Part shown: piece after piece, positions 19,869-34,965 of the stretch
How the letters are laid out: each line of letters starts with the position of its first letter
How positions within the stretch are numbered: the stretch's first letter is position 1
Assembly (NCBI RefSeq): GCF_004216665.1
Contig: NZ_SGWY01000001.1
Coordinates: 1,178,001-1,242,000, forward strand
Length of the DNA stretch: 64,000 bases
Direction: 5' to 3'
Origin: Agromyces ramosus
Lineage (GTDB): Bacteria; Actinomycetota; Actinomycetes; Actinomycetales; Microbacteriaceae
Program-made: the position numbers and the translations under genes
Notes under the pieces: generated by a model
Databases searched by the model: none
What the model saw: the letters and a program-made list of their open reading frames with translations, nothing else
What the model was told of the DNA's origin: nothing

Positions 19869-19916
19869 TCGTCATGTCCGGAGCAGCGGCGACGGCACGC
19901 GCCGGCGCTCGTGCGG

Positions 19917-20288: not shown

Positions 20289-20474
20289 ATGATCAGCACG
20301 GTTGCTGCCGGCTGGTTTCCGGACACCAACAGAGCCCACGTACTGAGGTGGTCCGCGGAGGTTCTCGAGGCGCTCGAGGCGCACCAGGTGGAGATCGTTG
20401 GGTGCCGCGTCGAACCCGCGGTCGAAGAGTTCCGCGCCAGCAGCTCAATGCTCCCAGTCGAGGACGCACGATGA
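20289..20474 (+). CDS. Hypothetical small protein, coupled to the next gene
   Basis: A 61-aa protein beginning MISTVAAGWFPDTNRAHVLR that I do not recognise. It contains one Cys and is mildly acidic with a helix-forming middle (WSAEVLEALEAHQVEI). The stop codon overlaps the start of the following coiled-coil membrane protein by 4 nt (ATGA), which supports that it is translated. ATG 20268 upstream is in frame and possible. Composition is lower in G+C than the flanking chromosome. Because it lies in a mobile island, its function may concern the element. Confidence 0.5.
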   Translation: MISTVAAGWFPDTNRAHVLRWSAEVLEALEAHQVEIVGCRVEPAVEEFRASSSMLPVEDAR

Positions 20475-21076: not shown

Positions 21077-21368
21077 CGCGCATGACGCCGGCACCGAAGA
21101 AGAGGGGCGAATAAGAAGGCATCTCACCGTGCGTAGCTCTTGCTCGCGTCCGCGGATAGCCGCATAACTGCCGGTGGGATTTGAACCCGAAGCGGAACGC
21201 AACGATGATGCAGCCTTCTGCTCCAATCGCCGGAATTCCGCGTGAGATGAGGCATGCCGGATCACCCCGTTGGGTGAATCGCCACAGGTTGCCATTCTGT
21301 TGCCACGGAAGCGCGCGTTGCCGGGCTGAGAGGTCGCCAAAGCTACGGCTCTGCGTCACCCTCTACTA
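21077..21368 (-). other. Apparent att end and integrase tail of an older element
   Basis: On the minus strand GGGTTCAAATCCCACCGG (21195-21173 region) looks like the T-arm and 3' end of a tRNA but lacks the rest, the usual form of an integration remnant. About 100 bp upstream, GTTGCCA occurs twice at 11-bp pitch (21288-21294 and 21299-21305), like the arm repeats of the resident integrase but with another sequence. The minus-strand frame between (GNARFRGNRMATCGDS) resembles a phage-integrase tail. The IS begins at 21369 and would have cut the rest away. Confidence 0.4.
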
Positions 21369-21945
21369 GGACGTGTTGCTAAAGCCGCTGGTGAGCCAGT
21401 GGAGTGTCGCAGCGAGGCAGAGGCCGGCGTGGTAGTTGCGGGCGAGTTTGTCTGAGCGCATCGCGATTCCGCGCCATTGCTTGAGCTTGTTGAAGCATCG
21501 CTCGACGACATTGCGGTCGCGGTACCGCTCTCGTTGCTGGTCACCGAAGTCGATCGGTCGCCCTCGTCGCTTGCGGCGATGCACGATCTGGTCATCACGC
21601 TCGGGGATCGTCGCTGCGATCCCGTGCCGGCGCAGCCACGCCCGGTTCGCTCTGGAGGGGTAGCCCTTGTCTGCGAGCACCCGATCGGGCCTGGTCCGCG
21701 GACGTCCAGATCCGCCAGGCACGCGGATCTGTTCGAGGGTTGCGGAGAGCATGCTCGTGTCGGCCGCCTGGCCAGGCGTGAGGATGAACGCCAGCGCGCG
21801 GCCCTTCCCGTCGCAAACCAGGTGGTTCTTGGTGGTCAACCCGCCGCGAGAGTGGCCGACCGCATGGTCAGGCGGCTCCAGTCCGAACTTCTTGTAGTTC
21901 GACAGAGCCCCCTGTGGTGCGCGGGAGTGTCGCGCCGTGCTGGTG
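21366..21945 (-). CDS. IS5-family transposase, downstream frame (orfB)
   Basis: Second part of the DDE transposase, read in the other frame from about 21945 to TAG 21366. It contains SRGGLTTKNHLVCDGKGRA, the second catalytic Asp in VLADKGYPSRANRAWL and the glutamate helix RNVVERCFNKLKQWRGIA. No independent start with a ribosome site is visible, as expected if it is expressed only by frameshifting from orfA. All catalytic motifs are intact across the two frames, so the IS may be active. Confidence 0.82.
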
Positions 21946-22310
21946 TACGCGCACGATCGTGGAGTCGATCGAGGCGACCCAGTCGAGGTCCCCGTTCTGC
22001 TGTGCGAGGGACTGGACCTTCTCCAGCACCCGCGCCCAGACCCCTGCTTCAGCCCACCGGTTGAAGTTCTTATAGATCGTGTTCCAGTTCCCGAGCCGCT
22101 CTGGCAGGTCCCGCCACGGCGCACCCGTGCGGAACCGCCACGCCGTCGCCTCGACCACCGTGCGGCGGTCCACCGGCGGCCGACCGGTCGCCTTCACCTT
22201 TGGGAACAACGGCCCGATCACGGCGGTCCACGCCTCATCCGAGATCACATCACGCGACACGCAACAAGACTCGCTCACAAAGCGCCGGAAGTGGTTGTGC
22301 AACACGCCCA
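21369..22310 (-). mobile_element. IS5-family (IS427-like) insertion sequence
   Basis: About 940 bp with imperfect terminal inverted repeats: AGGACGTGTTGCTAAAG at the left end (from 21369) and, read inward from the right end near 22310, TGGGCGTGTTGCACAAC. It contains a two-frame DDE transposase. The target duplication is not clear (IS427 elements duplicate only 2-3 bp). It interrupts the island between the coiled-coil gene and a small membrane protein gene. Confidence 0.75.
21868..22260 (-). CDS. IS5-family transposase, upstream frame (orfA)
   Basis: First part of a DDE transposase. It begins with the IS5 N-terminal domain (SDEAWTAVIGPLFPKVKATG, then WRFRTGAPWRDLPERLGNW) and reaches the first catalytic aspartate in VASIDSTIVRVHQHG before running out of frame at 21868. 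GTG 22260 is chosen because the conserved domain starts five codons later; an earlier ATG would lie in the right terminal repeat. IS427-group elements make the full enzyme by a -1 frameshift into the second frame, and a run of five G lies in the overlap. Confidence 0.82.
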   Translation of the reverse strand: MSRDVISDEAWTAVIGPLFPKVKATGRPPVDRRTVVEATAWRFRTGAPWRDLPERLGNWNTIYKNFNRWAEAGVWARVLEKVQSLAQQNGDLDWVASIDSTIVRVHQHGATLPRTTGGSVELQEVRTGAA

Positions 22311-22390
22311 AGGCGAGAGACGTCACTGAGCTATCCGAGGTGCTCGTAGCGTCACCGCCGAGAGTCGACCGTCGTCGCTATGATCATGCC

Positions 22391-22723
22391 ATGTCTGAGC
22401 CTGCGACGCCGCGGGCGTCAAGGCTCGCTATCGCGGCCCTGGCGCTGGGTATTCTTTCTTTGCTGCTCCAGGTCGCAGGCATTATCTGGTCTTCGGAGGC
22501 GCCGTCGGGCGAAGCAGGCCTGTCTAGGATCTGGATTGCGTCATTCCCGACCGCCCTCATTGGTGTCGCCGGCACCGTGACAGGGATAGTCGCGCTCGCG
22601 CGACGCGCGCGACCCAGGTGGATGGGCGTCGTCGGGCTCGTGTTCAGCGCAATCCCGCTTCTCTATTCCCTTCTCCAACTCGCCGCACTCTTGGCGTTCT
22701 TGGTGCAGCCGACGTTGTACTGA
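22391..22723 (+). CDS. Small membrane protein (DUF4190-like topology)
   Basis: A 110-aa hydrophobic protein with three predicted helices: near residues 11-31 (LAIAALALGILSLLLQVAGI), 50-70 and 78-103. The short cytoplasmic link ALARRARPRW between helices 2 and 3 and the repeated A-L-G-I-L-S pattern resemble DUF4190-like small membrane proteins, but the match is only by topology. ATG 22391 begins the coherent protein. It lies 80 bp after the IS and may have lost its original upstream region to that insertion. Confidence 0.65.
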   Translation: MSEPATPRASRLAIAALALGILSLLLQVAGIIWSSEAPSGEAGLSRIWIASFPTALIGVAGTVTGIVALARRARPRWMGVVGLVFSAIPLLYSLLQLAALLAFLVQPTLY

Positions 22724-22977
22724 CGCGGGCCCCGGAGGCGACGCTGGGCGCACGCGCGACGCTCCATGTGGGAGTACCGGGTGCAGTCCGAGCCCGATCC
22801 GACGGTGTTCGCGAATTTGCAGTTCCTTGCCGGGTACCGGCGCCGGTTCCCAGTTCGTCGACACGGAGGTTGCCGCTGCGGTCGATGAGCTGCAGGCCAA
22901 TCAGACGTTCGGGGAAGCGGTCCGTGCCGTGACTCCGATCGCGGGCGGTCCCCGGTTCGCCCGTTCCCTCGTGCTGC
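22724..22977. other. No intact gene; unassigned open stretch
   Basis: The plus-strand frame from 22827 reads GTGAGSQFVDTEVAAAVDEL and continues to about 22985, where it meets the transposase fragment in another frame. It may be the remains of a protein, but I recognise no family and no credible start. Together with the following fragment this makes a 411-bp stretch of debris. Confidence 0.4.
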
Positions 22978-23138
22978 ATCTACAAGGGCCGAAACGTCGT
23001 CGAGCGCAGCTTCAACAAGCTCAAGAACTGGCGCGGCATCGCCACCCGAAGCGACAAACTCGCCCGCAACTACCACGCCGGCGCCTGCTTCGCCGCGACC
23101 CTGTCTGGCTCAACTCAGGGTTTACCAACGCGCCCTAG
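22978..23138 (+). pseudogene. C-terminal fragment of a second IS5-type transposase
   Basis: Reads IYKGRNVVERSFNKLKNWRG and RSDKLARNYHAG, clearly homologous to the tail of the intact IS5-type transposase nearby (RNVVERCFNKLKQWRG) but not a copy of it. A one-base shift near 23100 moves the last residues (WLNSGFTNAP) into the next frame. Everything upstream of the glutamate helix is missing. It points to an earlier insertion on the opposite strand. Confidence 0.8.
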
Positions 23139-23671
23139 TTCCCGTCACTGCGGCTGCCTTCATCGTGCCCGCAGTACCTGTCTCCGCCTATAGTGACGTG
23201 TCCTGGGTCGAGCCCGCGGTCACGGACGCCATCTAGGACCGTGATCGCGACAGACTTGCTGATGGCGTCAGCATCCGCGTCCACCTGCGTCCCACGCTGC
23301 TCCAGATCGGCTGCGGCCTGGGCGCGGTTCTCTGTAAGCAGGGATTGATCGATCGGCAGATCCTCGAAGTCGATTGCCCGGAGGACCTCGCGCGCCGTTA
23401 CCACCGCATGGTCAGTGTCGGGAACACCCTTGGCATCGATCTTGAAGGCCATTGTGCACCGTTCTCCCCATAGATTCACTCGCTCGACCGTGCGATCGGC
23501 GCTTGCTCCCCACCACCAATACTGGAAGTCAGGCGTGGCCAGAGCAGCAGTCGCCGCGCCGAGCAGCACTACAGACACCGCGGTGCCCAGAATCATCCGT
23601 CGCCACGCGCGACGCCAACGTGGGGTTCGCTCGTCAACCGACTGCCCTGGCTCTTCATCCTCAGACACCAT
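23135..23671 (-). CDS. Hypothetical single-pass membrane protein
   Basis: A 178-aa protein of no recognised family. A basic N-terminus (RTPRWRRAWRR) leads into one helix, MILGTAVSVVLLGAATAALA (residues ~26-45), and the rest would be exported: it contains WWWGASADRTVERV, a Cys pair spread over the sequence (GERCTMAF and DRYCGHD) that could form a disulfide, and no catalytic motif. ATG 23671 is chosen as the codon closest to the anchor; ATG 23707 is possible. Its stop touches the transposase fragment on the other strand. Confidence 0.6.
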   Translation of the reverse strand: MVSEDEEPGQSVDERTPRWRRAWRRMILGTAVSVVLLGAATAALATPDFQYWWWGASADRTVERVNLWGERCTMAFKIDAKGVPDTDHAVVTAREVLRAIDFEDLPIDQSLLTENRAQAAADLEQRGTQVDADADAISKSVAITVLDGVRDRGLDPGHVTIGGDRYCGHDEGSRSDGN

Positions 23672-23707
23672 AGGTGCATCAAACACAACGGTGAGACACC
23701 TGCGCAA

Positions 23708-24062
23708 GACACGCGCGTCGACTGGGCCATGGCCGCCCTACGGTGATCCAGAATCGGTGGATACTCGGGAGGTACTCCTTCTCCCAGTCGCCGCGCCTCG
23801 CTGACGCTCGAGGACGCGATCGACAACGCCCGCACCCACACCAACGCGACCATCCCTCCCATCCACGACGCGATCCTCAGCGACCCGGCAAGCAACTCGT
23901 CAACGGCGTGCTGACCGCCATCTCACCCCGACCGTGTACAAGCGACCCACCGCCGGAGAGCGGTCACCATGTGAGGCCGCCGCGCAGGGCAATTCGGCGT
24001 CCGACCGATTGCCGGTAGCCGGTCCCTCAGTGAAGATGGCGCGTGACGATGCCGGGTTAGGG
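23708..24062. other. No supported gene
   Basis: About 355 bp without a convincing gene. A short plus-strand run reads LTLEDAIDNARTHTNATIPP around 23797-23860 and stops at 23913; it may be the remnant of a coding sequence but cannot be assigned. No hairpin terminator or clear promoter was seen. Confidence 0.4.
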
Positions 24063-24539
24063 TCAGCCTCGCCCAACTCGCTCGGTGAACTCCTCAGCGC
24101 TCAACTCCGGAGGCAGCGCCAGCAGGAAGTGCTCGCCTTCAAGCGGTTCGGCAACGGCCACCGCAGAAAGCACCTCGCCCCCGACTTTGATCACCAACCG
24201 AGAGTCGTCGCCCGCCTGCGCGGCTTCGGCAGCGGCGGACTCGACGACTGCCGCACCCTCGCTCGTGAGCGTGACATCGACAGCGTTGCCCACCTCATCG
24301 CCGGCGACCGCAATGGACTCGACTCCAGCCAGCGAGAAACCTGCATCGGGCACCATCACGTATTCCCCATTCACGTCGACGCACTCCGGCGCGGAGTCTG
24401 CAGCGCAGGTCTCCGAGACGGCAAGCTCGATGGCTCCCGCCGTCGCACCCGGATCTACCGCTCCCGCCCCGCTCGCGCATCCGCTGAGAAAGAGCAGCGC
24501 TACTCCGACACCGCTGACCTTGCCGACAACAGAACTCAC
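24063..24539 (-). CDS. Lipoprotein with SecD P1-head-like domain
   Basis: A 158-aa exported lipoprotein. The signal sequence ends in the lipobox LSGC (VALLFLSGCASGAG). The mature part includes VDVTLTSEGAAVVES and RLVIKVGGEVLSAVAVAEPL, which follows the pattern of the periplasmic P1 head of SecD (F-T-x-x-G-A, then R-L-A-I-V-L-D-G-x-V-x-S-A-P). GTG 24539 is chosen because GAGGAGG lies 8 nt upstream and it begins the signal peptide; the longer frame upstream is hydrophilic. Stand-alone proteins of this kind are found in Actinobacteria without known function. It is divergent from a secreted-protein gene. Confidence 0.72.
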   Translation of the reverse strand: MSSVVGKVSGVGVALLFLSGCASGAGAVDPGATAGAIELAVSETCAADSAPECVDVNGEYVMVPDAGFSLAGVESIAVAGDEVGNAVDVTLTSEGAAVVESAAAEAAQAGDDSRLVIKVGGEVLSAVAVAEPLEGEHFLLALPPELSAEEFTERVGRG

Positions 24540-24959
24540 GGACGACGCCTCCTCATTGAGCACCTGTGCGAGCGCACAAGCGCGCGAACCCAGCACGCTA
24601 CCGGTCGAAGGCTCGAGACGGAGGCACGACGGCGATGCATGTGAGGAACTTGGCATGCTTTCCCGCCCGATAGACGGTCCGTCGGCGGGCGTCCGCACGA
24701 GGATTGTCATACGGGCGCAGGTCAGGCACCGATCGCATACCCCCATTCTGGGGATATGAGGTTTGCTCAGTACCGATTCCCGGCACCTCATGCCCGGGTG
24801 TAACGTGCGGAGTGGCGTGAGAGACCCCTACGGCGCGATGCACGTCCTGCGACGACCTACCCACGTCGCTGGACCACGACGGTGACCCGATCCCGCCTTG
24901 TCGCCCCGCGGAGGACGTCCGGCCGCCCGACCGGACGCAACTGCGACCCGGAGGCGAAG
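24540..24959. other. Divergent intergenic region
   Basis: 420 bp between the lipoprotein gene (leftward) and the secreted-protein gene (rightward). Only the ribosome sites at each end are recognisable (GAGGAGG for the lipoprotein, GGAGG for the secreted protein). Promoters for both genes must lie here. TGAGGTTTGCTCAGTACCG near 24754-24772 is AT-richer than its surroundings. Confidence 0.45.
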
Positions 24960-25376
24960 ATGCCCCAAACCAAGAAACGCTTCTTTGCACGTGCCCTGAT
25001 TGTCGTGGCCGCGACTGTTGGCCTCGTGTTCGCTCAGGCCGCACCAGCATCGGCCACCGTGCACGAGATCGTGGGTCAGTGGTGCTCCGGCCAGGAAGAG
25101 CTCGCCCCGCCAGGGATCACCGGCGGAAGTCAGGCGGACAATTTCGCGAAGCCGCTCCTCGCGTCCGGCTTCGTCACAGGGAACCTCGTCCCGTTCACCG
25201 GAAGTGAGGGACCCGGGTTGCTCGTCGAGTTCAATTACGACCTTCCGAACGTGAAGGTGGTCGGAACCGGCGTGTTCATCGTCATCGACCCCAGTGTCCC
25301 GCTCTACCTCGAACTGATTGAGCCCGACCCCAACTTCCCGGCGTTCAAGGCCTGCCCGAAGTTGGCGACTGGCTAA
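24960..25376 (+). CDS. Secreted protein of unknown function
   Basis: A 138-aa protein with a Sec signal peptide: KTKKRFF-type basic start (MPQTKKRFFARALIVVAATV), hydrophobic core, and cleavage after ASA in AAPASATVHEIV. The mature part is about 103 residues with two Cys (WCSGQ near the start, KACPK near the end) that probably form a disulfide joining the termini. No family is recognised. ATG 24960 has GGAGG about 5 nt upstream, ahead of any alternative upstream start. The two-cysteine design is common in actinobacterial surface or immunity-like proteins, but that is only suggestive. Confidence 0.68.
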   Translation: MPQTKKRFFARALIVVAATVGLVFAQAAPASATVHEIVGQWCSGQEELAPPGITGGSQADNFAKPLLASGFVTGNLVPFTGSEGPGLLVEFNYDLPNVKVVGTGVFIVIDPSVPLYLELIEPDPNFPAFKACPKLATG

Positions 25377-25603
25377 CTGCTCAGCGCCACACCACACGGT
25401 CGTCAAGCGGACACCCTCCAGTGTCGTGCGGCCGGCCCTCAATGCTGAGGCCGACGGCGTGCGAACGGGAGGCGCCTCGGGCGCGCCTGTTGGAGGATCT
25501 GGCGCCGGCGACGGCAAACGAGCTCGATCCACGAAGCATGTGACACTGAGGCAATCCTGGCGAGGCCCTTCTCGGTGGCCTCACCCCGAGCGGAGTCGAG
25601 AAG

Positions 25604-25939
25604 ATGACGGCGATACCCCCGGAGCACGACCCGCCAGAGCCGAACGTCGATAGGCCTACGCCTCCGCCCGAGGCGCTCCCTGATCCGCCTGTGCCCCCGA
25701 GGCCCAACATCCACGTAAGCGCGCTGATCATATGGCTCACGATCTTCCCGCTCGTCGCCATCTTCAGCACATTGCTCGGACCGATGATGCCGGACTGGCA
25801 TCCCGTGGTCAGGGCGTTCGTCCTCACGCTCATCGTCGTTCCGATCGCGGCGTACTGGCTGATGCCTCAGATGTTCCGGTGGTATGCGACGTTCGCGCGG
25901 TACCGGGCCGCGCGACGCGCAGGCAGGGGCGTGCGGTAG
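25604..25939 (+). CDS. Small two-helix membrane protein with proline-rich N-terminus
   Basis: A 111-aa protein. Residues 1-35 are Pro-rich (PPEPNVDRPTPPPEALPDPP), followed by two helices near residues 39-60 (ALIIWLTIFPLVAIFSTLL) and 70-90 (AFVLTLIVVPIAAYWLMPQM) and a basic tail (RYRAARRAGRG). The helix pair with V-P-x-x-x-Y-W-x-M-P resembles the C-terminal two-helix unit attached to some antibiotic-biosynthesis-monooxygenase proteins; that domain itself is absent. Function unknown. ATG 25604 has a GGAG upstream. Confidence 0.62.
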   Translation: MTAIPPEHDPPEPNVDRPTPPPEALPDPPVPPRPNIHVSALIIWLTIFPLVAIFSTLLGPMMPDWHPVVRAFVLTLIVVPIAAYWLMPQMFRWYATFARYRAARRAGRGVR

Positions 25940-26486
25940 CGCGGCCTCGGGCGCGTCAAGTGGGCCGGGCATCCCCCTATGCGTGCGCGCGGATGAATGC
26001 CGCCACGCGCGGCGCGAGCGTCACCCCGATGACATGTCGGAGGATGTCGTGCCTTCCGCGGGCGCGTTGCGGGCCCCCGCGCGGTCAAGACAGATCGCTA
26101 TTGATCACCGGGCGGGGGCCCATGCACGGACGCCCGCAGACGGATCCGCTTCCGGACGTCCTCTCACGGACCGGTGTTCGGGCACAGCGGCATACTCAAC
26201 CAACGGCGCTGCGCATGTGCACCGAGTTGCGGACTTGAGCGACGTCATGCTCGGATTCGCTGCTCCGTCAGTGCCGCGCTTTGGGCCTTCCTGCCCGTTG
26301 GTAGCGGCCTCGTGCGGTCGAAGCCGGGACACCCTGGAGATGGCCATCGGATCGCGACTTGCTCGGTCGCGTCAGGGCCGTTGCTGGGGATGGAGTCTCG
26401 GAGCAGCGCGCGCCGCACGCGAACAAGGGCCGGCCTCATTGGCCCCCCTTAATGGCGATCCGGCACTGCCAATTCCCGGCGAGATC
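25940..26486. other. Long noncoding stretch before the CHAT operon
   Basis: Nearly 550 bp in which no frame on either strand looks like a real protein (short, Arg/Ser/Pro-rich, no starts with ribosome sites). It contains GGACGTCC near 26154, a core shared with the 22-bp palindrome at 32608-32629. It may be a regulatory region or decayed sequence. Confidence 0.45.
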
Positions 26487-26519
26487 ACCCGAGTGCCTCG
26501 CGAATGTTCTCACTCGGGT
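26487..26519 (+). promoter_or_regulatory. Inverted repeat overlapping the presumed CHAT-operon promoter
   Basis: ACCCGAGTG (26487-26495) and CACTCGGGT (26511-26519) form a perfect 9-bp inverted repeat centred 66 bp before the Trypco1 start. A TAGCTT box at 26539-26544 follows, so the right arm would cover the -35 position. A second small hairpin, TCCGGG-ctgt-CCCGGA (26554-26569), includes the A of the start codon. Candidate operator plus start-codon occlusion; unproven. Confidence 0.45.
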
Positions 26520-26568
26520 CTCGAAGGTGCCCCGCGGCTAGCTTCCGCGCGATTCCGGGCTGTCCCGG

Positions 26569-26967
26569 ATGGCGAAAGACCGGCGGTTGGAGGAGTATTT
26601 GCGGTACAGGCTCCGAGACTCGCGCCGGGGGGACCGCATCGTGGGGGATGTACTTGAGTTCAAGACGGGCGACGGCGTCGTGCTCGTCGAGACGATTGAC
26701 GTGTCGGATGGGCCCATCACGCGCGGAGGAGGCCCTCGATCGACCGTGATCGAGGCCAGCCAGAGCCTCGAGCAGGTCGTCGGGCGGGTCGGCCCGATCG
26801 TGAAGGGCATCGTGTCCGAGATCCGTCAGTCCGCGGAGTGGCCAGACGAGGTTGAGGTTGAGTTCGCGGTGAAGATCTCGGCGGACTCGAACCTCGTGAT
26901 CGCGCGCGCCGGTGGTGCAGCGAACTTCCGCATCGCACTGAGATGGGGCGGGCCGAGGCCACGCTGA
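26569..26967 (+). CDS. Trypco1-domain protein (CU044_2847 type)
   Basis: A 132-aa protein whose residues ~25-128 match the trypsin-co-occurring domain 1: VLEFKTGDGVVLVETIDV, then SLEQVVGRVGPIVKGIVSEI, then WPDEVEVEFAVKISADSNLV and NFRIALRW, in the family's order. Known members sit beside trypsin-like or caspase-like peptidases in actinobacterial conflict systems and are thought to be an accessory or regulatory partner. Its stop codon overlaps the CHAT protease start (TGATG), so both are made together. No ribosome site is evident; translation may be leaderless or limited by the hairpin at the start codon. Confidence 0.8.
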   Translation: MAKDRRLEEYLRYRLRDSRRGDRIVGDVLEFKTGDGVVLVETIDVSDGPITRGGGPRSTVIEASQSLEQVVGRVGPIVKGIVSEIRQSAEWPDEVEVEFAVKISADSNLVIARAGGAANFRIALRWGGPRPR

Positions 26968-29900
26968 TGGCCGTCCGCGAGTACGACGACCTCCAGTTGC
27001 GCATCGACCGCGATGCGGACGGGTCCTACAGGGTGCTGGCTATGGCGCCAGACGGACGCACCGCCCGCGGCTCGTTTACGCCTCCGGTGACCGAGGGTGA
27101 GCTTGACGAGTTCGTGCAGCGGGTTGGGCTGGCGCGCCGGCGAAGCGGCTCGCCTGACGCGCGGATGCTCGCGATCAAGGACCTCGGCTCGACGCTGTAC
27201 GACGCGCTCATCAAGGACGACATCGGTACAGTGTTCTACTCCGCGCGGAGCGCCGCAGCGGAGCGCGACCGAGGGCTGCGGATCACCCTGCGGCTCTCCG
27301 GCTCGCCCGAGTTGATGCGGTTGCCGTGGGAGTTCCTGTACAAACGGCCGCGGTTCATCGCCCAGTCGACCCAGACACCGGTCGTACGCGCGCTCGACGT
27401 GGACTCCGCGATGCGGCCGCAGCAACTGCGGCTACCGCTTCGGATTCTCGCCATGGTCAGCAGCCCGTCGGGGTATCCCGAGCTCGACGCCGACGCCGAG
27501 CGACGCAATCTTGAGCGAGCGCTCGAGGGACCGCGCCGGGCCGGACTCGTGGAGCTCACCTGGCTCGAACGCGCGACCCTCGGGGAGCTCGGACGCCGCA
27601 TCTCCGAACCCGACGAGGTCCATGTCTTGCATTACATCGGCCACGGTGCCTACGACGAGGCTACCGAGTCGGGCGTGCTAGTGCTGGAGACGCCACAGGG
27701 TCGCGCCCATGACGTCTCAGGAGAGGACATCGGCGCGATGCTCCAGGACGAGACAAGCCTGCGCCTCGTCGTGCTCAACGCCTGCGAGGGCGCCCGTACC
27801 TCGCATGTCGACCCGTTCTCCGGCGTCGCCACGAGCCTCGTGAACTTCGACATCCCAGCCGTCATCGGGATGCAGTTCGAGATCACCGATGACGCCGCGA
27901 TCGCGTTCAGCGAGAGCCTGTACACCGGCCTCGCCCGGGGCCTTGCGATCGACGCGGCGCTGGCGCCTGCCCGTCGGGCGATCATCGGCGCGATGATGGC
28001 GAACGAATTCGGGACGCCGGTGCTCTTCCTCCGCGACGGCGATGCGCGGCTGTTCGACATCGCGGATGCGAAGGCGACTAGCTTAGTCGACGAGGTGCCG
28101 ACGTCGGCGGACCTCCCACAGGCGTCCCATTCGGAGTCGGAGGTCCTCGTCGACGACGTGCCGACGGGCATCGTAGACGAAGTACTGACTCCGGCGGACC
28201 TCACTCAGGTCTCCGATTCGGAGTCGGGGGTTCTGGTCGACGACGTGCCGACGGGCAATGCCTCCGAAGCTGTTCTGGTCGAGATCGATTCAGGCGACGA
28301 CGTGGCGGTCGAAGACGCCGGCGCTGAGGTGGCGATCGCGCCGCGGCATTCGGCCTCCGACAACCCGCAACCGGCGCCCGATCCGGACTCGCGCAATCCT
28401 CACGGGAGTGAAAGGCCACCTGCGGGCCATCCGACGAGGCGGCCAACCGGGGCCGATGCGGTGCCCGTCCCGCCGAGCGCCGATACGGTGTCTGACGACC
28501 CGCCAGCGACATCGCTCGGCGGAGGGGCGTGGCCGCCACTACGTACGCGTCTCGTCACAGCGCGCGGTTCGGTTGTGATGTTCGCGATCGTGGTGGCGTC
28601 GGCCTGGATCGCTGTGGCAATGCTTGCCCTTACGGCCAGCGGGGTGTCCGTCCCCGGGTTGGGCAGTCTTGAATCGGACCGCGTCTGGCTGATCACGCAG
28701 ACGGTTGCTGTCGCGGTGTTGGCGGTTCACCACCTCGCTCGCCTGGGCCGGGACGCCGCCATCGCCGCCTCTGGATATTTACTCGGCGTCGGCATCAATC
28801 TCTACGCGTTGGTCGCGCTGACCACCTCCCGTTACGAGGACGTCAAATGGGCACTGATCTTGTTCGGCCTCCTGTTGGGCGCTGTCGGAGCCTGGTTGCT
28901 CATCGCGGGCAGGAAACGCGCCACACCGTTCGCAAGCAGTTCTCGCCTCCCTGGTCCGTTCGTCATCGCGAGTGGGGTGACCTACGTGCTATTCGGGGTG
29001 ATCTTGGTAACCGACTCATACGACTGGATGTCGCTCGCTGTGTGGATACTGTCGTTGGCAACCGTCGGGATGGGGGTCGGCTACGCGATCTCTGCCGCGC
29101 TCATTGTGAGAGAGGGCCGGCCCCGGTTTTCAGATGACCGCCCCGCCCAGCTCATCGAACCCGGCGAGGAGGTGCGAGGGCGGCCCTTGGTCGACCCCGC
29201 GGAACCGCTCCGCCCGCAGATTATTCGCGCGCCCGACGGGCCAACCCCGCACGTCACACTGCCGATCACGACCGCGTGGATCGCTGCTGGTCTGCTCGCC
29301 GTCCTCGCGTGGTTCACACTCATGTGGGAACCCTCGAGCTGGAACCTCGGCGCGGGCCAGCTCGTGCAGGTACTTGCCCTCGCAGTCCTTGCGATCCACC
29401 ACTTCACCCGCCCTCATCGCGACAGCGCGGTCGCAGCCAGCGGATACGCCCTCGCCGTCGGAGCGAGTCTCGTCTCGCTTGCGAATTCTCTCGCCAGTCG
29501 GGGAGGCGCGACATCGATCAACGGGCAACCGATACCGATGGCTGGGGCGACCTCTACCGATGGATGGGGCTACTTCGCCTTTGGACTCATCCTGATAGTG
29601 GTAGGAGGATGGCTCCTTGTGGCCGGAAAGAAAGTAGGCCTACCGTACGACGCGAGTCTCCGGGTCCCAGGCCCATTCGTGATCGCCGCCGGGGCGGTGT
29701 TCTGCTTCGTCTCCGTCGTCTGGTTGACGGAGACCTGGGAGCTCCTCGAGCTGATCGGCTGGTTGTGGCCGCTCGCCCCGCTCGCAATGGCCGGCGGCTA
29801 CGCATGGTCCGCCGTTCTGCTGGCACGGGCGGCGAAGTCCACAAAGGGTAATCCCGCTGCGGGTCCAGCGAATGCGACTCCTGACCTGTTGTCGGCCGCA

Positions 29901-30047
29901 AGCGCCCCATCTGCGATCGCGGCAGGCTCGGTTGAACTCAGGACGGAGACCACGGGTCGGCCGTCAGAGCCGAGTCCAGCTGCGTCATCCGGGTCGAACG
30001 AGCAGCCTAGGTCCGACGGCCGCGCAGAACCAGACAGCGACGAATGA
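26967..30047 (+). CDS. CHAT-domain (caspase-like) protease fused to a duplicated membrane domain
   Basis: A 1026-aa protein. Residues ~60-365 are a CHAT peptidase domain with both catalytic residues: His226 in LHYIGHGAYDE and Cys273 in LVVLNACEGARTS. Residues 373-430 hold two 29-residue tandem repeats (each ending VLVDDVPTG), then a Pro/Asp-rich linker to ~530. The C-terminal half has about twelve helices in two homologous blocks (~535-712 and ~768-950): VLAVHHLARLGRDAAIAASG versus VLAIHHFTRPHRDSAVAASG, and LPGPFVIASG versus VPGPFVIAAG. The protease would be cytoplasmic and the pore-like part in the membrane. ATG 26967 overlaps the Trypco1 stop. Confidence 0.85.
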   Translation: MAVREYDDLQLRIDRDADGSYRVLAMAPDGRTARGSFTPPVTEGELDEFVQRVGLARRRSGSPDARMLAIKDLGSTLYDALIKDDIGTVFYSARSAAAERDRGLRITLRLSGSPELMRLPWEFLYKRPRFIAQSTQTPVVRALDVDSAMRPQQLRLPLRILAMVSSPSGYPELDADAERRNLERALEGPRRAGLVELTWLERATLGELGRRISEPDEVHVLHYIGHGAYDEATESGVLVLETPQGRAHDVSGEDIGAMLQDETSLRLVVLNACEGARTSHVDPFSGVATSLVNFDIPAVIGMQFEITDDAAIAFSESLYTGLARGLAIDAALAPARRAIIGAMMANEFGTPVLFLRDGDARLFDIADAKATSLVDEVPTSADLPQASHSESEVLVDDVPTGIVDEVLTPADLTQVSDSESGVLVDDVPTGNASEAVLVEIDSGDDVAVEDAGAEVAIAPRHSASDNPQPAPDPDSRNPHGSERPPAGHPTRRPTGADAVPVPPSADTVSDDPPATSLGGGAWPPLRTRLVTARGSVVMFAIVVASAWIAVAMLALTASGVSVPGLGSLESDRVWLITQTVAVAVLAVHHLARLGRDAAIAASGYLLGVGINLYALVALTTSRYEDVKWALILFGLLLGAVGAWLLIAGRKRATPFASSSRLPGPFVIASGVTYVLFGVILVTDSYDWMSLAVWILSLATVGMGVGYAISAALIVREGRPRFSDDRPAQLIEPGEEVRGRPLVDPAEPLRPQIIRAPDGPTPHVTLPITTAWIAAGLLAVLAWFTLMWEPSSWNLGAGQLVQVLALAVLAIHHFTRPHRDSAVAASGYALAVGASLVSLANSLASRGGATSINGQPIPMAGATSTDGWGYFAFGLILIVVGGWLLVAGKKVGLPYDASLRVPGPFVIAAGAVFCFVSVVWLTETWELLELIGWLWPLAPLAMAGGYAWSAVLLARAAKSTKGNPAAGPANATPDLLSAASAPSAIAAGSVELRTETTGRPSEPSPAASSGSNEQPRSDGRAEPDSDE
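28083..28256 (+). repeat. Two tandem 87-bp repeats encoding the CHAT linker
   Basis: Codons 373-401 and 402-430 of the CHAT-membrane protein encode 29-residue units that share 22 residues: VDEV-x-T-x-ADL, SES and the end VLVDDVPTG. Similarity is also seen at DNA level (GTCGACGACGTGCCGACGGG in both). This kind of tandem linker can change copy number. Confidence 0.75.
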
Positions 30048-30192
30048 ATGAGCAGACAGTTTGCCTCAATATTCAGATTCCATACTTCGCGGCGAACGGC
30101 GCCGGCCCTTCCGCTTAACCCGGAACGCTAGGGCTGGCCCGGAGACGTCGGGATTCCCTCGGCGCTAGCATGACGCAAAGGGGGAAGCGATA

Positions 30193-31956
30193 GTGCATGT
30201 CCTTGAAGTCGGGGTCAGCCGCGGAGGCGGGCGGGGCGAGTACGTCGTGCAGGTCGTGCGATCGCCCGCGGGTGAGGCATCTGCGACGTTCACCCTCGAT
30301 AGCGACCGGCTGCTTGATGAGCGTCCGAACCTGCAGAACGCGCTCCTGTTGTCGTCGGTGAGCAGCCGGCGCGCAGCGGTCTCGGGTAATGAGGGTCTGG
30401 TGCAGACAGTTGGTCGGGAACTGTTCAATGCAGTATTTGGCCCCAAGGCAATCGCCGGTCTCTACGCCGCGAACCGTGCGCTGGCGGATGCCACCCAGGA
30501 AGAGCTCCGGATCGTGCTTAGGACGGAGTGCCCCGAGCTCGCGGCGCTGCCGTGGGAGGTCATGTACGACTCCGACGCAGATGCCTATGTGTGCCAGCGT
30601 GAACCGCTTGTCCGCCACGTGCCCGTGGCCACGGCGCCGCCACCCCTGCGCGTCCGCGGCGCCGTGCGCATTCTGGGCGTCGTCTCGTCGCCGCGCGGGC
30701 TGGCCATGCTCGACGTCGATAAGGAGAAGGAGAACCTGATCTCCGCGCTCGCGGGTCCGGCCAAGCGAGGGCTCGTTGACCTGCAGTGGGCGCCTGACGC
30801 GACCTGGAGCACCCTGCAGGAACTGCTCCTCAGTGAGGAATGGCACGTCATCCACTTCATCGGGCACGGCGACTTCGACTTCGAACGCGAAGAGGGCATC
30901 CTCGCGCTGGTCGGCAAGGACGGCCGGACCCACCGCGTCGAGGGCAGCCGGTTCGTCGTCCTACTGCGGCAGGCCCGGCCCATGCCGCGGCTCGTGGTGC
31001 TCAACTCATGCTCCTCGGCCACTTCGAGCTCTCAGGACCTGTTCTCGGGGACGGCGGCGGCGCTCGTGCGCGGCGGCGTCAGCGCGGTCGCGGCCATGCA
31101 GTTCGAGATCACCGACAGCGCGGCGATCGAGTTCTGCAGGGGCTTCTACAACGCCGTCGCGCACGGGCGCGGTGTCGACGAGGCGGTCGGCAGCGGACGC
31201 GTGGCGATCCTCGGGTCCAGCGGCGACACGCTGGAGTGGCTCACGCCGGTGCTCTACCTCCGCGGGCTGGACTCGCAGTTGTTCGCCGTCGAGCGCGCCG
31301 GTGCGGACGGCGCCCCGCCGCCGCCGAGTGCCGAGGAGCGCGTGGCGCAGGCGCAGGAGGCGCTCGACGAGCACGACGCCGCGACCGCGATCCCCGTCCT
31401 CGACACGGTGCTCGCCGACGATCCGGAGAACGCGCCGGCGCAGGAACTGCGCGGGGCCACCGTCGAGGACGTCGGGAGCGTGTCACGTAATGCGGCTGCG
31501 ATCAGTGTGCTCGAGGGTCGAATCATAGAGATGCGAGACTTAGAACGAGACATTCGCGCACGCTTGCGCTCCATCTTTTCCAGTGCTTTCCAGAGACTTG
31601 GTTCTTCGGATGATTTCGTCCTTCAGGCATTTGCGCGAGAGCATGGACAGCAACTGGATCGGTTCCTTGAGGAGATGAGCCGAAAACTGATCGGGCTGTC
31701 TATTGTCAACGACGATCAGTCCAATGAGGGGGATCAGTTGTTCGTAGACCCGGAAGCCGTCAGGATACGTGAGCTCATCGAGTTCGCATCCCAATATCGG
31801 ATGCGTCTTGAAACATGGCTGCTGACCATTCGGGGCGATCTGGCTCACCTCGCAACGCGAACCGACTTCTATGGTCAACCGGCGGAAAGCCTCCGAGCCG
31901 AATTGGGAAGGTACTTCCAAGCGCAATTGGAGCGCTTGGGCCCCTCTGCGGCATGA
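30193..31956 (+). CDS. Second CHAT-domain protease with unrecognised C-terminal domain
   Basis: A 587-aa soluble protein. Residues ~60-380 are a CHAT domain with His225 in IHFIGHGDFD and Cys273 in LVVLNSCSSATS, close paralogue in layout to the upstream CHAT protein. Residues ~390-425 resemble one TPR-like helical pair (VAQAQEALDEHDAATAIPVL). From ~432 to the end, about 155 residues of helical, charged sequence (starting SRNAAAISVLEGRI) have no family I know, and their DNA is distinctly lower in G+C than the protease part. GTG 30193 has GGGGGAAG upstream. It follows the CHAT-membrane gene by 145 bp on the same strand. Confidence 0.83.
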   Translation: MHVLEVGVSRGGGRGEYVVQVVRSPAGEASATFTLDSDRLLDERPNLQNALLLSSVSSRRAAVSGNEGLVQTVGRELFNAVFGPKAIAGLYAANRALADATQEELRIVLRTECPELAALPWEVMYDSDADAYVCQREPLVRHVPVATAPPPLRVRGAVRILGVVSSPRGLAMLDVDKEKENLISALAGPAKRGLVDLQWAPDATWSTLQELLLSEEWHVIHFIGHGDFDFEREEGILALVGKDGRTHRVEGSRFVVLLRQARPMPRLVVLNSCSSATSSSQDLFSGTAAALVRGGVSAVAAMQFEITDSAAIEFCRGFYNAVAHGRGVDEAVGSGRVAILGSSGDTLEWLTPVLYLRGLDSQLFAVERAGADGAPPPPSAEERVAQAQEALDEHDAATAIPVLDTVLADDPENAPAQELRGATVEDVGSVSRNAAAISVLEGRIIEMRDLERDIRARLRSIFSSAFQRLGSSDDFVLQAFAREHGQQLDRFLEEMSRKLIGLSIVNDDQSNEGDQLFVDPEAVRIRELIEFASQYRMRLETWLLTIRGDLAHLATRTDFYGQPAESLRAELGRYFQAQLERLGPSAA

Positions 31957-31969
31957 CTAACCCCGTCTC

Positions 31970-32024
31970 GTGGCATCGGTGCCTCGAAGATTCGCTGCGC
32001 CCGATGCCACATCCCGTGTGGCAT
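31970..32024 (+). terminator. Overlapping alternative hairpins after the CHAT genes
   Basis: GTGGCATCGG (31970-31979) pairs with CCGATGCCAC (32001-32010), and the latter segment can instead form ATGCCACA-tcccg-TGTGGCAT (32004-32024). The two stems exclude each other. Located 14 bp after the second CHAT gene stop; no T-run follows. Probably terminates or stabilises the operon transcript. Confidence 0.5.
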
Positions 32025-32130
32025 GTCGCCGCTGACGGGCGGTGGCCAACCGACCTGCCCGACAGGCGGTCCGTCCGCGGACGTCCTGAACGGGATCCGT
32101 CATTGGCCTCCTGCGTATTGTCAGGAGCGC

Positions 32131-32490
32131 TCACGCAGGGGGCGGCTCGCGGTGGCCGTCCTGAAGTTCCTCCGAGACCGCGCGGAACACGGATTTCGCG
32201 GCTTGGCGGTTCGCGGTGCTCTGCAAGAGCCCTCCAGACATACCCCTTGGCTCCACGGTCAGCTGAAGCACTGAGCCCACGCCCGACGGAACGACTTGGA
32301 TGCGTATCCGCTCTCCAAATCCAGACAGGCTCGCCGCTGTTGTCAGAAGCTCGACGGTCAGCATGAAATCGTCCGAGGCCTTCAGCTTGAACTGCTTCTC
32401 GGCAACCGAACGCAGCGTCGCGTATGCCACTGCCGGCGACACGGGCACGTACCGGTCGTCGCACTGAGGCTTGTATCCAAATAGGGCCAT
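32131..32490 (-). CDS. Hypothetical protein (DUF1499/SRPBCC-like layout)
   Basis: A 119-aa soluble protein. The pattern of an amphipathic start (AYATLRSVAEKQFKLKASDD), alternating strands (LTVELLTTAASLSGFGERIR, IQVVPSGVGSVLQLTVEPRG) and a final helix (SVFRAVSEELQDG) looks like small actinobacterial proteins of the DUF1499 or SRPBCC-like kind, but the match is by pattern only. One Cys in YKPQCDDRYV. ATG 32490 is the natural start. It is convergent with the CHAT operon and has lower G+C than chromosomal neighbours, like the rest of the island. Confidence 0.6.
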   Translation of the reverse strand: MALFGYKPQCDDRYVPVSPAVAYATLRSVAEKQFKLKASDDFMLTVELLTTAASLSGFGERIRIQVVPSGVGSVLQLTVEPRGMSGGLLQSTANRQAAKSVFRAVSEELQDGHREPPPA

Positions 32491-32698
32491 GGCGCGATAT
32501 TAGCCATGTTGATAACTCGATCGAGACTGCTATTCGGAGGGATCACGGCGGATTTCGCCCTTCGCGTTGGCGCGCCAAAGTCGTGCCCCGCGGTTATTCC
32601 GCGCATCCGCTTGCGGACGTCCGCAAGCGAACCCAAGGATCGTCTTGCGTGCGCTAATCGTCTGCTCTCTGCTCGGGCCCGCCTCTACTGTTGCTTCC
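32491..32698. other. Intergenic region holding a long palindrome
   Basis: About 200 bp with no gene, containing the 22-bp perfect palindrome at 32608-32629 and presumably the promoter for the gene on each side. Confidence 0.5.
32608..32629. repeat. 22-bp perfect palindrome
   Basis: CGCTTGCGGAC is followed directly by its reverse complement GTCCGCAAGCG with no spacer, giving a perfect 22-bp dyad. The GCGGACGTCC core recurs in the island near 32075. A spacer-less dyad suits a symmetric DNA-binding dimer better than an RNA hairpin. Confidence 0.7.
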
Positions 32699-33241
32699 GT
32701 GAATCGGCAGCGCGAACCCGACTTCGAAGACAACTGGCGGGTTTTCGATGAGGTCGTCGCGTAGACTCGCGACCTGGTCGGTTCCGACGGCACTGAGGAC
32801 CTCGGCTACGTCCACAGCGGCCGAATCGGCGTCTACGATGTCGAACCGCTCAACCCCCGCGCGCGACGTATCAACATCATTGCCGAGCAGTTCTTCATCG
32901 TGACTGTCGGCGATGACGGCGGGCGCTGGGAATTGAGCTACACGGATGAGGACATCGCCCTCGCACGGCGCATCATCGCCGCCGCCGTGGCAGGCAGAAT
33001 CGAGGAGCGCAAGGCGTTCGGACGCTCCCGCGTGGTCGTCACGTTTGAGGACGGCGAGACCATCGGCGAGACCGGCTACTCCGGATGCGCGTCGCTGGTG
33101 GTGCCGCAGCCGGGATGGACTCGATGGGGCGAAGGGATCCGCTACGAGCCATTCGGTCGTCATAGTCCGACGAGGGCAAGCACCAACGGCACGATCTTCG
33201 ATGCTCGGAGATCTGTTGTTGCGGTAACTCCAGTCTGCTAG
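32699..33241 (+). pseudogene. Hypothetical gene interrupted by an in-frame TAG
   Basis: From GTG 32699 the frame reads VNRQREPDFEDNWRVFDEVV, meets TAG at 32762-32764, and then continues in the same frame as a coherent protein: TRDLVGSDGTEDLGYVHSGR, AEQFFIVTVGDDGG, RWELSYTDEDIALARRII and VVVTFEDGETIGETGYSG up to 33241. Together these would be about 180 residues. No start codon with a ribosome site occurs soon after the TAG; the first GTG is at 32900. No family is recognised. Either a nonsense mutation or a short downstream ORF from 32900. Confidence 0.5.
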
Positions 33242-33768
33242 GCCGTAGTTCGCGCGGTGTCCGATCAGGGTCCTCGTGCGTCCATGGTCCGCGCCGAGCC
33301 GAACGTTCGCTTGTGCGCGAATGATGCGATGCCCGCATACCTCGCCCGGTGAAGATGCCCGCTCAGGTACGCCAACCGCAACAGGGATGTCCGTCTGGAA
33401 GGTCGACTCACGGGACAGGGTCGCCCGAGGCCTCTCGAGAGCCGTGCCCACATTTTGCCCACGACTGACCACCACTGATCGGGACACACGGTGATCACGT
33501 TGCCGCCGAATGCCCCGGATTCATTGGGCAGACAATCCCGACCCCCGAGACTAGGCGGCATCCGAGCCGACTGAAAATCGGAAGGTCACCGACTAGAGCG
33601 GTGAGAGCATTCGGGGGAAATCGACCTCGGGTCGGTATGGGTCGCGCACCAATGCGGCGATCACCCAGTGACTCATCCGTCAATAATCCGACGCCTGCTT
33701 CGTCTGAATCTAGCGACTGCAGACCCGGCCAGGGGAGGTTGGTTGGACCGAATCAGGAAGGACCGCAG
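33242..33768. other. Regulatory region upstream of the integrase
   Basis: More than 500 bp without a credible gene. It holds the inverted pair of TGTGGGCA repeats (33445-33463), two hairpins at 33567-33581 and 33587-33603, and ends with GGAAGGA just before the integrase start. No excisionase-like protein is visible. Confidence 0.5.
33445..33463 (-). repeat. Paired TGTGGGCA repeats, candidate integrase arm site (upstream of int)
   Basis: TGCCCACA (33445-33452) and TGCCCACG (33456-33463), i.e. TGTGGGCA-type units on the minus strand at 11-bp pitch. Over 24 bp the site matches the left-end copy at 22 positions, in inverted orientation. Confidence 0.6.
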
Positions 33769-34899
33769 TTGGCGACGATCAGCGCGTACGAAACGGCGAA
33801 TGGCCGACGGTACCGAGTCCGCTACCGGAAGCCAGATCGCACTCAGACCGATAAGCGGGGCTTCAAGACCAAGCGGGAAGCGGAGCTCTTTGCGTCATCC
33901 GTCGAAGTCGCGAAGGCCCGCGGAGAGTTCATCGACGCTACCGCAGCTCGGGCAACCATTGGAGTTCTCGGCGCTGAATGGCTCGCCACGCAGACGCATT
34001 TGAAACCGTCGACCGCACGATCGATCGAGAGCGCATGGCGTGTTCACGTCGAGCCCGTCTGGGGTGGACGGGCGGTCGCAGACGTACGGCACAGCGAGGT
34101 CCAAACATGGGTGACGAGACTCGCCAGGACCAAGAGCGCTACGACGGCAAAGCGGGCGCATGGAATCCTTTCGTCGATCCTTCAACGAGCGGAGAAGGAC
34201 CGTCGAGTCGCAACCAATGCTGCACGTGGGGTGAATCTTCCCCGCAAGAAGGCACGGAAGCACATCTACCTCTCCCATAATCAGGTGGACGCGTTGGCGA
34301 GCAACGCAGGCGAGCAGGCGACGCTCGTGAGATTCCTCGCATACACGGGCCTGCGCTGGGGTGAGGCCACGGCGCTCAGAGTTCGCGATCTCGATCTACT
34401 CCGGCTGAGGGCGAGCGTCGTCGAGAATGCTGTGCGGGTCGGCGGTCGGATAGTCGTAGGAACGCCCAAGTCGCATCGGAGTCGGTCAGTTCCGATCCCT
34501 CAGTTCCTCGCAGAATCAGTGAGTCGTCTTTGCGAGGGCAAATCTCGAGACGCGCTGCTTTTCGGCGACGGTGGCTACTACGTGCGGCCGCCCAGCTCCC
34601 AGTCGGGCTGGTTCGAGAGAGCCGTGCGCGCGACGATGGCTGCGGACGTCTCCTTCGAGCGTGTCACGCCCCACGACCTACGGCACACAACGGCCAGCCT
34701 GGCGATTAGCGCAGGCGCCAACGTCAAAGCGGTGCAACGAATGCTGGGTCATGCCTCTGCGGCGATGACGCTGGACATCTACGCTGACCTCTTCGACGAC
34801 GACCTCGATGCGGTTGGAGCAGCCTTGAATCATGCGGCTGGAGCGGCAACTGTGGGCAGAATGTGGGCAAACGGTCGCGAGTCAACTGCCGTGAGCTAG
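33769..34899 (+). CDS. Tyrosine-type site-specific integrase
   Basis: Integrase of the element, 376 aa from TTG 33769. An N-terminal AP2-like/arm-binding region (ISAYETANGRRYRVRYRKPD and KTKREAELFASSVEVAKARG) is followed by the SAM-like core-binding domain and the catalytic domain. The active residues are present: Arg196 in TGLRWGE, His302-x-x-Arg305 in HDLRHT, His328 in LGHAS and Tyr338 in LDIYADLF. GGAAGG lies 6 nt before TTG 33769; an ATG/GTG-initiated extension to 33601 is low-complexity and less likely. The stop lies 41 bp from attR. It would integrate and excise the 15-kb element. Confidence 0.93.
   Translation: MATISAYETANGRRYRVRYRKPDRTQTDKRGFKTKREAELFASSVEVAKARGEFIDATAARATIGVLGAEWLATQTHLKPSTARSIESAWRVHVEPVWGGRAVADVRHSEVQTWVTRLARTKSATTAKRAHGILSSILQRAEKDRRVATNAARGVNLPRKKARKHIYLSHNQVDALASNAGEQATLVRFLAYTGLRWGEATALRVRDLDLLRLRASVVENAVRVGGRIVVGTPKSHRSRSVPIPQFLAESVSRLCEGKSRDALLFGDGGYYVRPPSSQSGWFERAVRATMAADVSFERVTPHDLRHTTASLAISAGANVKAVQRMLGHASAAMTLDIYADLFDDDLDAVGAALNHAAGAATVGRMWANGRESTAVS
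34851..34869 (+). repeat. Paired TGTGGGCA repeats, candidate integrase arm site (end of int)
   Basis: TGTGGGCA at 34851-34858 and 34862-34869, 11 bp apart, inside the last codons of the integrase gene (encoding VGRMWAN) and about 70 bp from attR. Confidence 0.6.
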
Positions 34900-34939
34900 A
34901 GACTTCCGCAGAGTTACAGGCCACACGGCACTCGTACGC

Positions 34940-34965
34940 CGGGCAGGACGGTGGGGTGGGAACCC
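34940..34965 (+). repeat. attR: right copy of the 26-bp direct repeat
   Basis: Identical over 26 bp to 19917-19942 and in the same orientation. Unlike the left copy, it continues rightward into sequence that completes a 13-bp hairpin, so the chromosomal target before integration was probably this hairpin. Confidence 0.8.

What the first reader, a model, noticed from the sequence alone, without database searches (positions are those of the whole stretch)
26569..31956. Trypco1 - CHAT protease - second CHAT protease operon on a mobile island: candidate defence or cell-suicide system
Three collinear genes: a Trypco1 protein, a CHAT protease whose start overlaps the Trypco1 stop (TGATG), and a second CHAT protease 145 bp on. 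Both CHAT domains keep the His/Cys dyad (His226/Cys273; His225/Cys273). Trypco1 domains are known from NTP-dependent conflict systems, usually next to one peptidase; the two-protease, membrane-linked form on a 15-kb integrative element looks different from the described sets. Inference: one partner senses infection or stress and activates proteolysis and membrane damage.
Basis: partly seen in the sequence, partly recalled or inferred. Interest (0 to 1): 0.9.

Follow-up and report, generated by a model that had tools for sequence, protein, structure and literature searches.

The report
Mobile twin caspase-like guard proteases
On a 15-kb inserted element, an actinobacterium (probably an Agromyces) carries a small Trypco1 gene followed by two genes of the caspase-like CHAT family from two different lineages, whose tails differ: one is predicted to sit in the membrane and the other resembles part of the cell's own polar-growth scaffold Wag31, so the pair would likely act as a suicide switch that trips when a phage attacks those parts.

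Summary
Observation confirmed: Trypco1 (about 26641-26967), CHAT1 (26967-30047) and CHAT2 (30193-31956), His/Cys dyads intact, inside a 15.0-kb element (19903-34965) with integrase and 40-bp end repeats; the flanks adjoin in 5 of 8 relatives examined. (2) The CHATs belong to a constant-head, swapped-tail family: 233 tails form 42 groups on one CHAT module, and 399 protein pairs have heads at least 80% identical but tails with no detectable kinship. (3) CHAT2's tail has two stretches resembling the C-terminal motif of the host's own Wag31/DivIVA, and relatives of CHAT2 carry the DivIVA N-terminal motif. CHAT1 and CHAT2 come from two deep lineages, not a recent duplication. I read it as a two-headed guard: sensor or bait tails (membrane; polar scaffold) that would switch on caspase-like proteolysis, with Trypco1 as likely brake or folding partner. 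Sensing, substrate, Trypco1's role and phage defence are inferred, not tested.

The parts
19903..34965 (.). 15.0-kb integrated element, end repeat to end repeat
   Evidence: 40-bp direct repeats 93% alike; flanks adjoin in 5 of 8 relatives
19903..19942 (+). left end repeat (att-like)
34926..34965 (+). right end repeat (att-like), inside a hairpin that lies behind the MarR gene in relatives
33601..34899 (+). tyrosine integrase, 432 aa
   Evidence: PF00589 2.1e-21; phrog_1 2.3e-69
26641..26967 (+). Trypco1 protein, 108 aa (frame opens at 26569)
   Evidence: PF19493 5.1e-20; start by homologue alignment
26967..30047 (+). CHAT1, 1026 aa: CHAT head, low-confidence linker, two six-helix bundles predicted to be membrane
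   Evidence: PF12770 1.9e-25; model; hydropathy
27180..27992 (+). CHAT domain of CHAT1 (aa 72-342; His226 at 27642-27644, Cys273 at 27783-27785)
28560..29117 (+). first helix bundle of CHAT1 (aa 532-717)
29247..29846 (+). second helix bundle of CHAT1 (aa 761-960)
30193..31956 (+). CHAT2, 587 aa, GTG start: CHAT head, weak TPR-like stretch, helical tail
   Evidence: PF12770 1.1e-29
30406..31227 (+). CHAT domain of CHAT2 (aa 72-345; His225 at 30865-30867, Cys273 at 31009-31011)
31510..31608 (+). Wag31-like stretch 1 of the CHAT2 tail (aa 440-472)
   Evidence: score 56, 0 of 5000 shuffles; NF050102 3.8e-6 on the tail
31762..31857 (+). Wag31-like stretch 2 of the CHAT2 tail (aa 524-555), weaker and chosen by eye
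   Evidence: score 45, 1 of 5000 shuffles

Best explanation
This is a mobile three-gene operon of the CHAT family that likely works as a two-headed guard: each predicted caspase-like protease would be held off until its own tail, a predicted membrane bundle in CHAT1 and a Wag31-like helical stretch in CHAT2, is disturbed by a phage or by damage, and would then cleave cell proteins and stop the cell. Shown: gene order, element ends and empty site, dyad residues, two CHAT lineages, swapped tails across the family, and Trypco1 beside CHAT instead of trypsin. Inferred: Trypco1 binds the CHAT protein as brake or folding partner; the tails sense or anchor; CHAT2's tail joins the Wag31 scaffold or is bait for what attacks it; the output is growth arrest or death that stops phage.
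For: Dyads kept; CHAT fold of the CHAT1 model closest to an activated SAVED-CHAT filament (8tl0, 9.6e-7). Trypco1 adjoins CHAT in 15 of 68 Trypco1 loci, none of which has a trypsin-like frame in the stretch held, and no CHAT was found in the other 53; stop and start overlap in the window, L017 and L019. Heads kept, tails swapped: 1 head cluster, 42 tail clusters, 399 pairs with heads at least 80% identical and no tail kinship. Tails seen include DnaN clamp, L7/L12, thioredoxin, DivIVA, kinase. CHAT2 tail: Wag31 model 3.8e-6, score 56 to host Wag31 against a next best of 42 in 3597 frames; P0245, P0246 and P0287 carry the DivIVA N-terminal motif. A phage protein that binds and disables Wag31 is known in mycobacteria (passages of PMC7474061), and an immune protein that senses phage-bound FtsZ is known (abstract of PMC13423816). 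Patchy distribution: Trypco1 in 10 of 60 genomes of the genus.
Against: No activity, trigger or substrate is shown. No effector other than the two CHATs was matched in the island frames scanned. No other defence gene was matched on the island (PADLOC on 7 proteins found only partial SAVED_CHAT and BovA matches to the CHAT heads). The host-genome search with the CHAT2 tail (E up to 0.1) did not return Wag31; the two Wag31-like stretches do not resemble each other (1293 of 5000 shuffles as good), the second was chosen by eye, and shuffling breaks helix periodicity, which flatters the match. CHAT1's tail has no relative in the host genome beyond itself. In most Trypco1-CHAT loci only one CHAT of the window's Trypco1 clade is present; a second CHAT of the other lineage follows only here and in L021.
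Confidence: 0.4

Rival explanations
1. A regulatory protease pair for growth or division, not defence: CHAT2 sits at the pole through its Wag31-like tail and trims growth proteins, as HetF, a CHAT-containing protein, takes part in cyanobacterial division.
For: Both heads match the HetF model in part (2.9e-18 and 1.5e-15, far below its cut-off of 1200 bits); Wag31-like and DivIVA tails. HetF's divisome role was seen only as title and start of abstract (PMC8406250).
Against: Patchy occurrence (CHAT in 19 of 60, Trypco1 in 10 of 60 genomes), place on an inserted element, and tails too varied for one housekeeping role.
Confidence: 0.2
2. An addiction or element-keeping set: Trypco1 is the antidote and the CHATs are toxins that kill cells losing the element.
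For: Small gene overlapping the upstream end of a larger one and an integrated element.
Against: The same pair sits off this element: in L013 with other genes, in 8 further loci of the genus and on an Arthrobacter plasmid; the island integrase has no tblastn match in L013, L014 and L017-L082; swapped tails do not fit a plain toxin.
Confidence: 0.15
3. The Wag31 resemblance is a common coiled-coil pattern; the CHAT2 tail is an oligomer-forming helix with no tie to Wag31.
For: The stretches do not resemble each other, shuffles break helix periodicity, and the host search missed Wag31.
Against: Score 56 against a next best of 42 in 3597 frames and 34 in unrelated CHAT tails; relatives of CHAT2 carry the other end of DivIVA.
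Confidence: 0.4

Closest known systems
Trypco1 with trypsin-like peptidase in VMAP / vWA-MoxR ternary conflict systems (PMC7159879, passages read)
   Same: Trypco1 next to a peptidase gene
   Different: here the peptidases are CHAT, not trypsin; no trypsin-like frame in the window and no ATPase matched in the island frames scanned
DGR-diversified conflict loci with adapter Trypco1/Trypco2 and trypsin- or caspase-like peptidases (PMC10907252, passages read)
   Same: Trypco domains near caspase-like or CHAT peptidases had been noticed
   Different: no account in the passages of a one-to-one Trypco1-CHAT pair or of CHAT heads with swapped tails
canu caspase-nuclease defence (PMC12799240, passages read)
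   Same: caspase-family protease in an operon, proven against phage T4 there
   Different: no nuclease matched beside the window's CHATs; canu's caspase is described as paracaspase-like with an Ig-like fold, not CHAT
SAVED-CHAT and TPR-CHAT (Craspase) proteases (PDB title; papers seen as listings)
   Same: CHAT head, His/Cys dyad; switched on by a partner or signal (recalled)
   Different: no SAVED domain matched; no Cas protein matched in the 7 proteins scanned with PADLOC
Prokaryotic metacaspases with varied added domains (PMC3501461, passages read)
   Same: caspase-fold protease with many added domains, some with membrane helices
   Different: Peptidase C14, not CHAT; the passages do not describe near-identical heads with swapped tails

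Membership tests
CHAT family (PF12770) | profile match above the curated cut-off | tested here: met
   90.3 and 104.3 bits, cut-off 24
CHAT family (PF12770) | His/Cys dyad | tested here: met
CHAT family (PF12770) | proteolytic activity | not testable with these tools
   needs an assay
Trypco1 (PF19493) | profile match above the curated cut-off | tested here: met
   72.3 bits, cut-off 24.6; also NF041216 56.2, cut-off 23
Trypco1-trypsin / VMAP ternary system | trypsin-like peptidase neighbour | tested here: not met
   no trypsin-like frame in the window by a profile built here
Trypco1-trypsin / VMAP ternary system | MoxR ATPase and vWA proteins | tested here: not met
   none among the island frames scanned with Pfam
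SAVED-CHAT | SAVED domain | tested here: not met
   no SAVED match in Pfam; PADLOC model matched over 156 and 126 of 498 positions only
canu | partner pro-nuclease | tested here: not met
   none matched among the island frames scanned; the only DNA-acting matches are integrase and an IS transposase
EACC1-associated caspase (NF047832) | model score over cut-off | tested here: not met
   15.2 and 14 bits, cut-off 140
HetF (NF045509) | model score over cut-off | tested here: not met
   65.6 and 56.6 bits, cut-off 1200
DivIVA/Wag31 (NF050102) | whole-length match over cut-off | tested here: not met
   CHAT2 tail 27 bits over 36 of 256 positions, cut-off 260; a resemblance, not membership. The host's own Wag31 also stays below that cut-off
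anti-phage defence system | protection against phage | not testable with these tools
   needs phage challenge

The most novel reading that the evidence does not exclude
CHAT proteases of actinobacteria are bacterial counterparts of plant guard and integrated-decoy immune receptors: a constant caspase-like head onto which parts of host machines that phages attack (Wag31/DivIVA, DnaN clamp, L7/L12, thioredoxin) or surface lectins are grafted as bait, with Trypco1 as an interchangeable protease companion shared with trypsins; the window holds a mobile two-headed version that watches the membrane and the growing pole.
Probability: 0.28. Interest if true: 0.93.

Novelty: new variant of a known kind. 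Interest (0 to 1): 0.74.

Why it matters
Integrated decoys are, as I recall, best known from plant immune receptors; a bacterial protease family whose tails are parts of host machines would make that idea testable with phages and single-residue mutants. The second partner of Trypco1, so far named for trypsin, makes its role (brake, folding aid or adaptor) directly testable. On print: full-text searches (open-licence library only) listed two papers with the word Trypco1 and no title or abstract start on CHAT heads with swapped tails; most subscription papers are not held.

Tried and rejected

Limits: the Trypco1 loci are 60 places picked by hand from those listed, spread over families; 3 of them (L031-L033) had no Trypco1 by my profile and are not in either partner class (no CHAT in any; a trypsin-like frame in L031 and L032). 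My CHAT, Trypco1 and trypsin profiles were built here from search hits; the trypsin one began with three proteins. Protein searches list the best 120 by score with words from the first 500 residues, so they favour kept heads; the claim rests on pairs with near-identical heads, not on the ranking. Only 1 of 2 lectin-like tails given to Pfam alone matched PA-IL, and below cut-off.

Full report
What is there. Three genes on the + strand: Trypco1, CHAT1 and CHAT2, with Pfam matches above cut-off. The Trypco1 frame opens at 26569, but homologues start near the GTG at 26641. Its TGA shares an A with the ATG of CHAT1 at 26967. The same overlap is seen in L017 and L019; in L018, L024 and L029 the two genes are close but do not overlap that way. 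CHAT2 starts at a GTG behind a GGGGG stretch.

The element. Direct repeats of 40 bp (93%) at 19903-19942 and 34926-34965 enclose 15.0 kb; the right one begins 27 bases after the end of the integrase gene. Of 8 relatives fetched, in 5 (L087, L088, L090, L091, L092) the left flank (to window 19256-19275) and the right flank (from window 34943-34948) lie 24 to 84 bases apart; 2 (L085, L089) have other genes there (gaps of 5.9 and 2.3 kb), and 1 (L086) has no left-flank match in the stretch held. The right junction falls in a hairpin-forming sequence that follows the MarR gene in the relatives (MarR PF12802 6e-16). A PRC-barrel gene (PF05239 2.1e-4) lies between MarR and the left repeat here but not in those 5 relatives, so the left side may have a second history. 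Apart from the operon and integrase, the island frames scanned gave an IS4/5-type transposase in two overlapping frames and otherwise weak or no matches.

Anatomy. The CHAT1 model is of middling quality overall (mean pLDDT 66.4, pTM 0.41). Its CHAT part is closest to an activated SAVED-CHAT filament (8tl0, 9.6e-7); caspases follow from rank 9 at E 0.058 and worse, among unrelated membrane proteins. After a low-confidence stretch (about aa 368-534) come two bundles of six helices, agreeing with hydropathy. CHAT2 has no hydrophobic segment, a weak TPR-like stretch below cut-off and a helical-looking tail.

Second partner for Trypco1. I examined 68 loci (window, L013, L017-L082). In 15 (window, L013, L017-L021, L023-L030) a CHAT frame lies on the same strand within 622 bp and no trypsin-like frame is found. 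In 50 others no CHAT is found; 43 of the 50 hold a trypsin-like frame in the stretch, 26 within 105 bp on the same strand, one on the other strand; 7 have neither by my profiles. Three (L031-L033) lack Trypco1 by my profile. Annotated examples of the trypsin type are L094, L095 and L096. In a Trypco1 tree of 66 rows (few columns for so many rows) the CHAT label needs 2 changes against 14.6 in shuffles (0 of 500 as low): one clade of 8 holds the window with G316, G079, Microbacterium, two Demequina and two Solirubrobacterales loci (99/99), the other, of 8, the genus's lectin-type loci with an Arthrobacter megaplasmid (91/76). One origin is not ruled out.

In the genus (60 genomes) Trypco1 is in 10 and CHAT (E up to 1e-10) in 19; the 10 lie within the 19 (Fisher p 1.2e-6, relatedness not corrected). 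Of 11 Trypco1 places 10 adjoin a CHAT; the exception is G339. In a family-wide draw Trypco1 is in 4 of 299 genomes. That the genus is Agromyces is inference: a same-genus genome (G079, contig 3,800,100) fits a named Agromyces intestinalis record with a Trypco1 protein (contig 3,800,200).

Constant head, swapped tail. Against CHAT1, 119 listed relatives align over residues 101-350 at 66-81% mean identity per 50-residue bin; past residue 400 only 3 to 39 of 119 align per bin. For CHAT2, 1 of 119 aligns in 451-500 and none past 500. Of 240 CHAT proteins 233 have a tail of 60 or more residues (7 dropped); heads form 1 cluster, tails 42, and 399 pairs have heads at least 80% identical with no tail hit at E 1e-5. 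Tails include WD40 and kelch propellers (precomputed domains), and by direct scan of 10 proteins a DnaN clamp (P0174), tandem L7/L12 with WD40 (P0172), thioredoxin (P0250; P0322 has it in front of CHAT), an ABC-2 exporter (P0181), an Mrr nuclease domain (P0298), a kinase (P0317), DivIVA (P0246, P0287) and a mycobacterial 19-kDa antigen domain (P0180). Of 10 further relatives, most tails gave no Pfam match. P0155, a close relative of CHAT1, ends in a lectin-like stretch by eye.

CHAT2 and Wag31. NCBIfam's Wag31 model matches the tail at 3.8e-6 over 36 of 256 positions, far below its cut-off. The host Wag31 lies at C2:1006837-1007424. Against its C-terminal motif the tail scores 56 at aa 440-472 (0 of 5000 shuffles as high) and 45 at aa 524-555 (1 of 5000). 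In 1149 tiles of 238 CHAT tails (CHAT2's own copy among them) the three best are CHAT2's own; the next is 34. In 3597 frames of the loci held, the next best after CHAT2 is 42. Against it: the two stretches are not alike, the second was chosen by eye, shuffling destroys helix periodicity, and the own-genome search did not return Wag31. P0245 and P0246 (75% identical heads) and the more distant P0287 carry the DivIVA N-terminal motif (TIGR03544 at 8.1e-13 and 1.7e-17 for the first two; PF05103 6.5e-13 for P0287; scores 117-175 to the host motif). So parts of this scaffold seem to have reached this CHAT lineage more than once.

Two heads. CHAT1 and CHAT2 lie on opposite sides of a long branch (the tree warns of long branches for L020 and L021). 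One other locus, L021 (a Solirubrobacterales MAG), shows Trypco1, a broken CHAT head, and a CHAT that the tree puts with CHAT2's side.

Other sets in the same genome. It has 10 CHAT and 2 Trypco1 matches. L013 holds CHAT-CHAT-Trypco1-CHAT-CHAT and an NYN/OST-HTH gene; the NYN gene lies in 6 loci of this type. These CHATs have one hydrophobic segment and a tail like the lectin LecA: PF07828 at 5.8e-4 for 1 of 2 tails tried, below cut-off; as a profile of 8 tails, PllA at 1.2e-4 and LecA at 0.014 in the PDB; two cysteines invariant in those 8. Protease inside and lectin outside is the layout of a receptor; that topology is inferred.

Mechanism. As I recall, CHAT proteases are switched on by binding partners or signals (TPR-CHAT, SAVED-CHAT; seen here only as listings and titles). 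For phages, Fruitloop gp52 binds and disables Wag31 (passages of PMC7474061), and an immune protein can sense phage-bound FtsZ (abstract of PMC13423816). From these and the anatomy I infer that tails are sensors or bait and heads the executioners, with Trypco1 as brake or folding partner.

Verdict.

Noticed in passing
L013:6627-15786 (own genome C1): CHAT-CHAT-Trypco1-CHAT-CHAT array, each CHAT with one hydrophobic segment and a LecA-like tail, followed by an NYN/OST-HTH gene that also lies in L023, L025, L026, L027 and L030.
   Followed up: partly
L014:6796-11448 (own genome C3): Two more CHAT genes in tandem with doubled lectin-like tails and no Trypco1 match nearby.
   Followed up: no
L016:7753-10032 (own genome C2): A CHAT protein of another build: DUF7363 (PF24063) in front and CHAT at the end.
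   Followed up: no
P0174, P0172, P0250, P0322: CHAT proteins fused to DnaN clamp, tandem L7/L12 with WD40, and thioredoxin: candidates for host-part bait.
   Followed up: partly
P0241, P0267, P0281, P0220: CHAT heads that lack the catalytic Cys in the alignment used, the first two in proteins with two CHAT stretches: possible dead regulatory heads.
   Followed up: no
window 21366-22326: IS4/5-type transposase in two overlapping frames on the - strand inside the island.
   Followed up: partly
L085, L089: In two relatives the interval behind MarR holds other genes (5.9 and 2.3 kb), so the site may be an insertion hot spot.
   Followed up: partly
L093 (Arthrobacter sp. StoSoilB13 megaplasmid): CHAT followed by Trypco1 in overlapping frames, the reverse order to the window.
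   Followed up: partly
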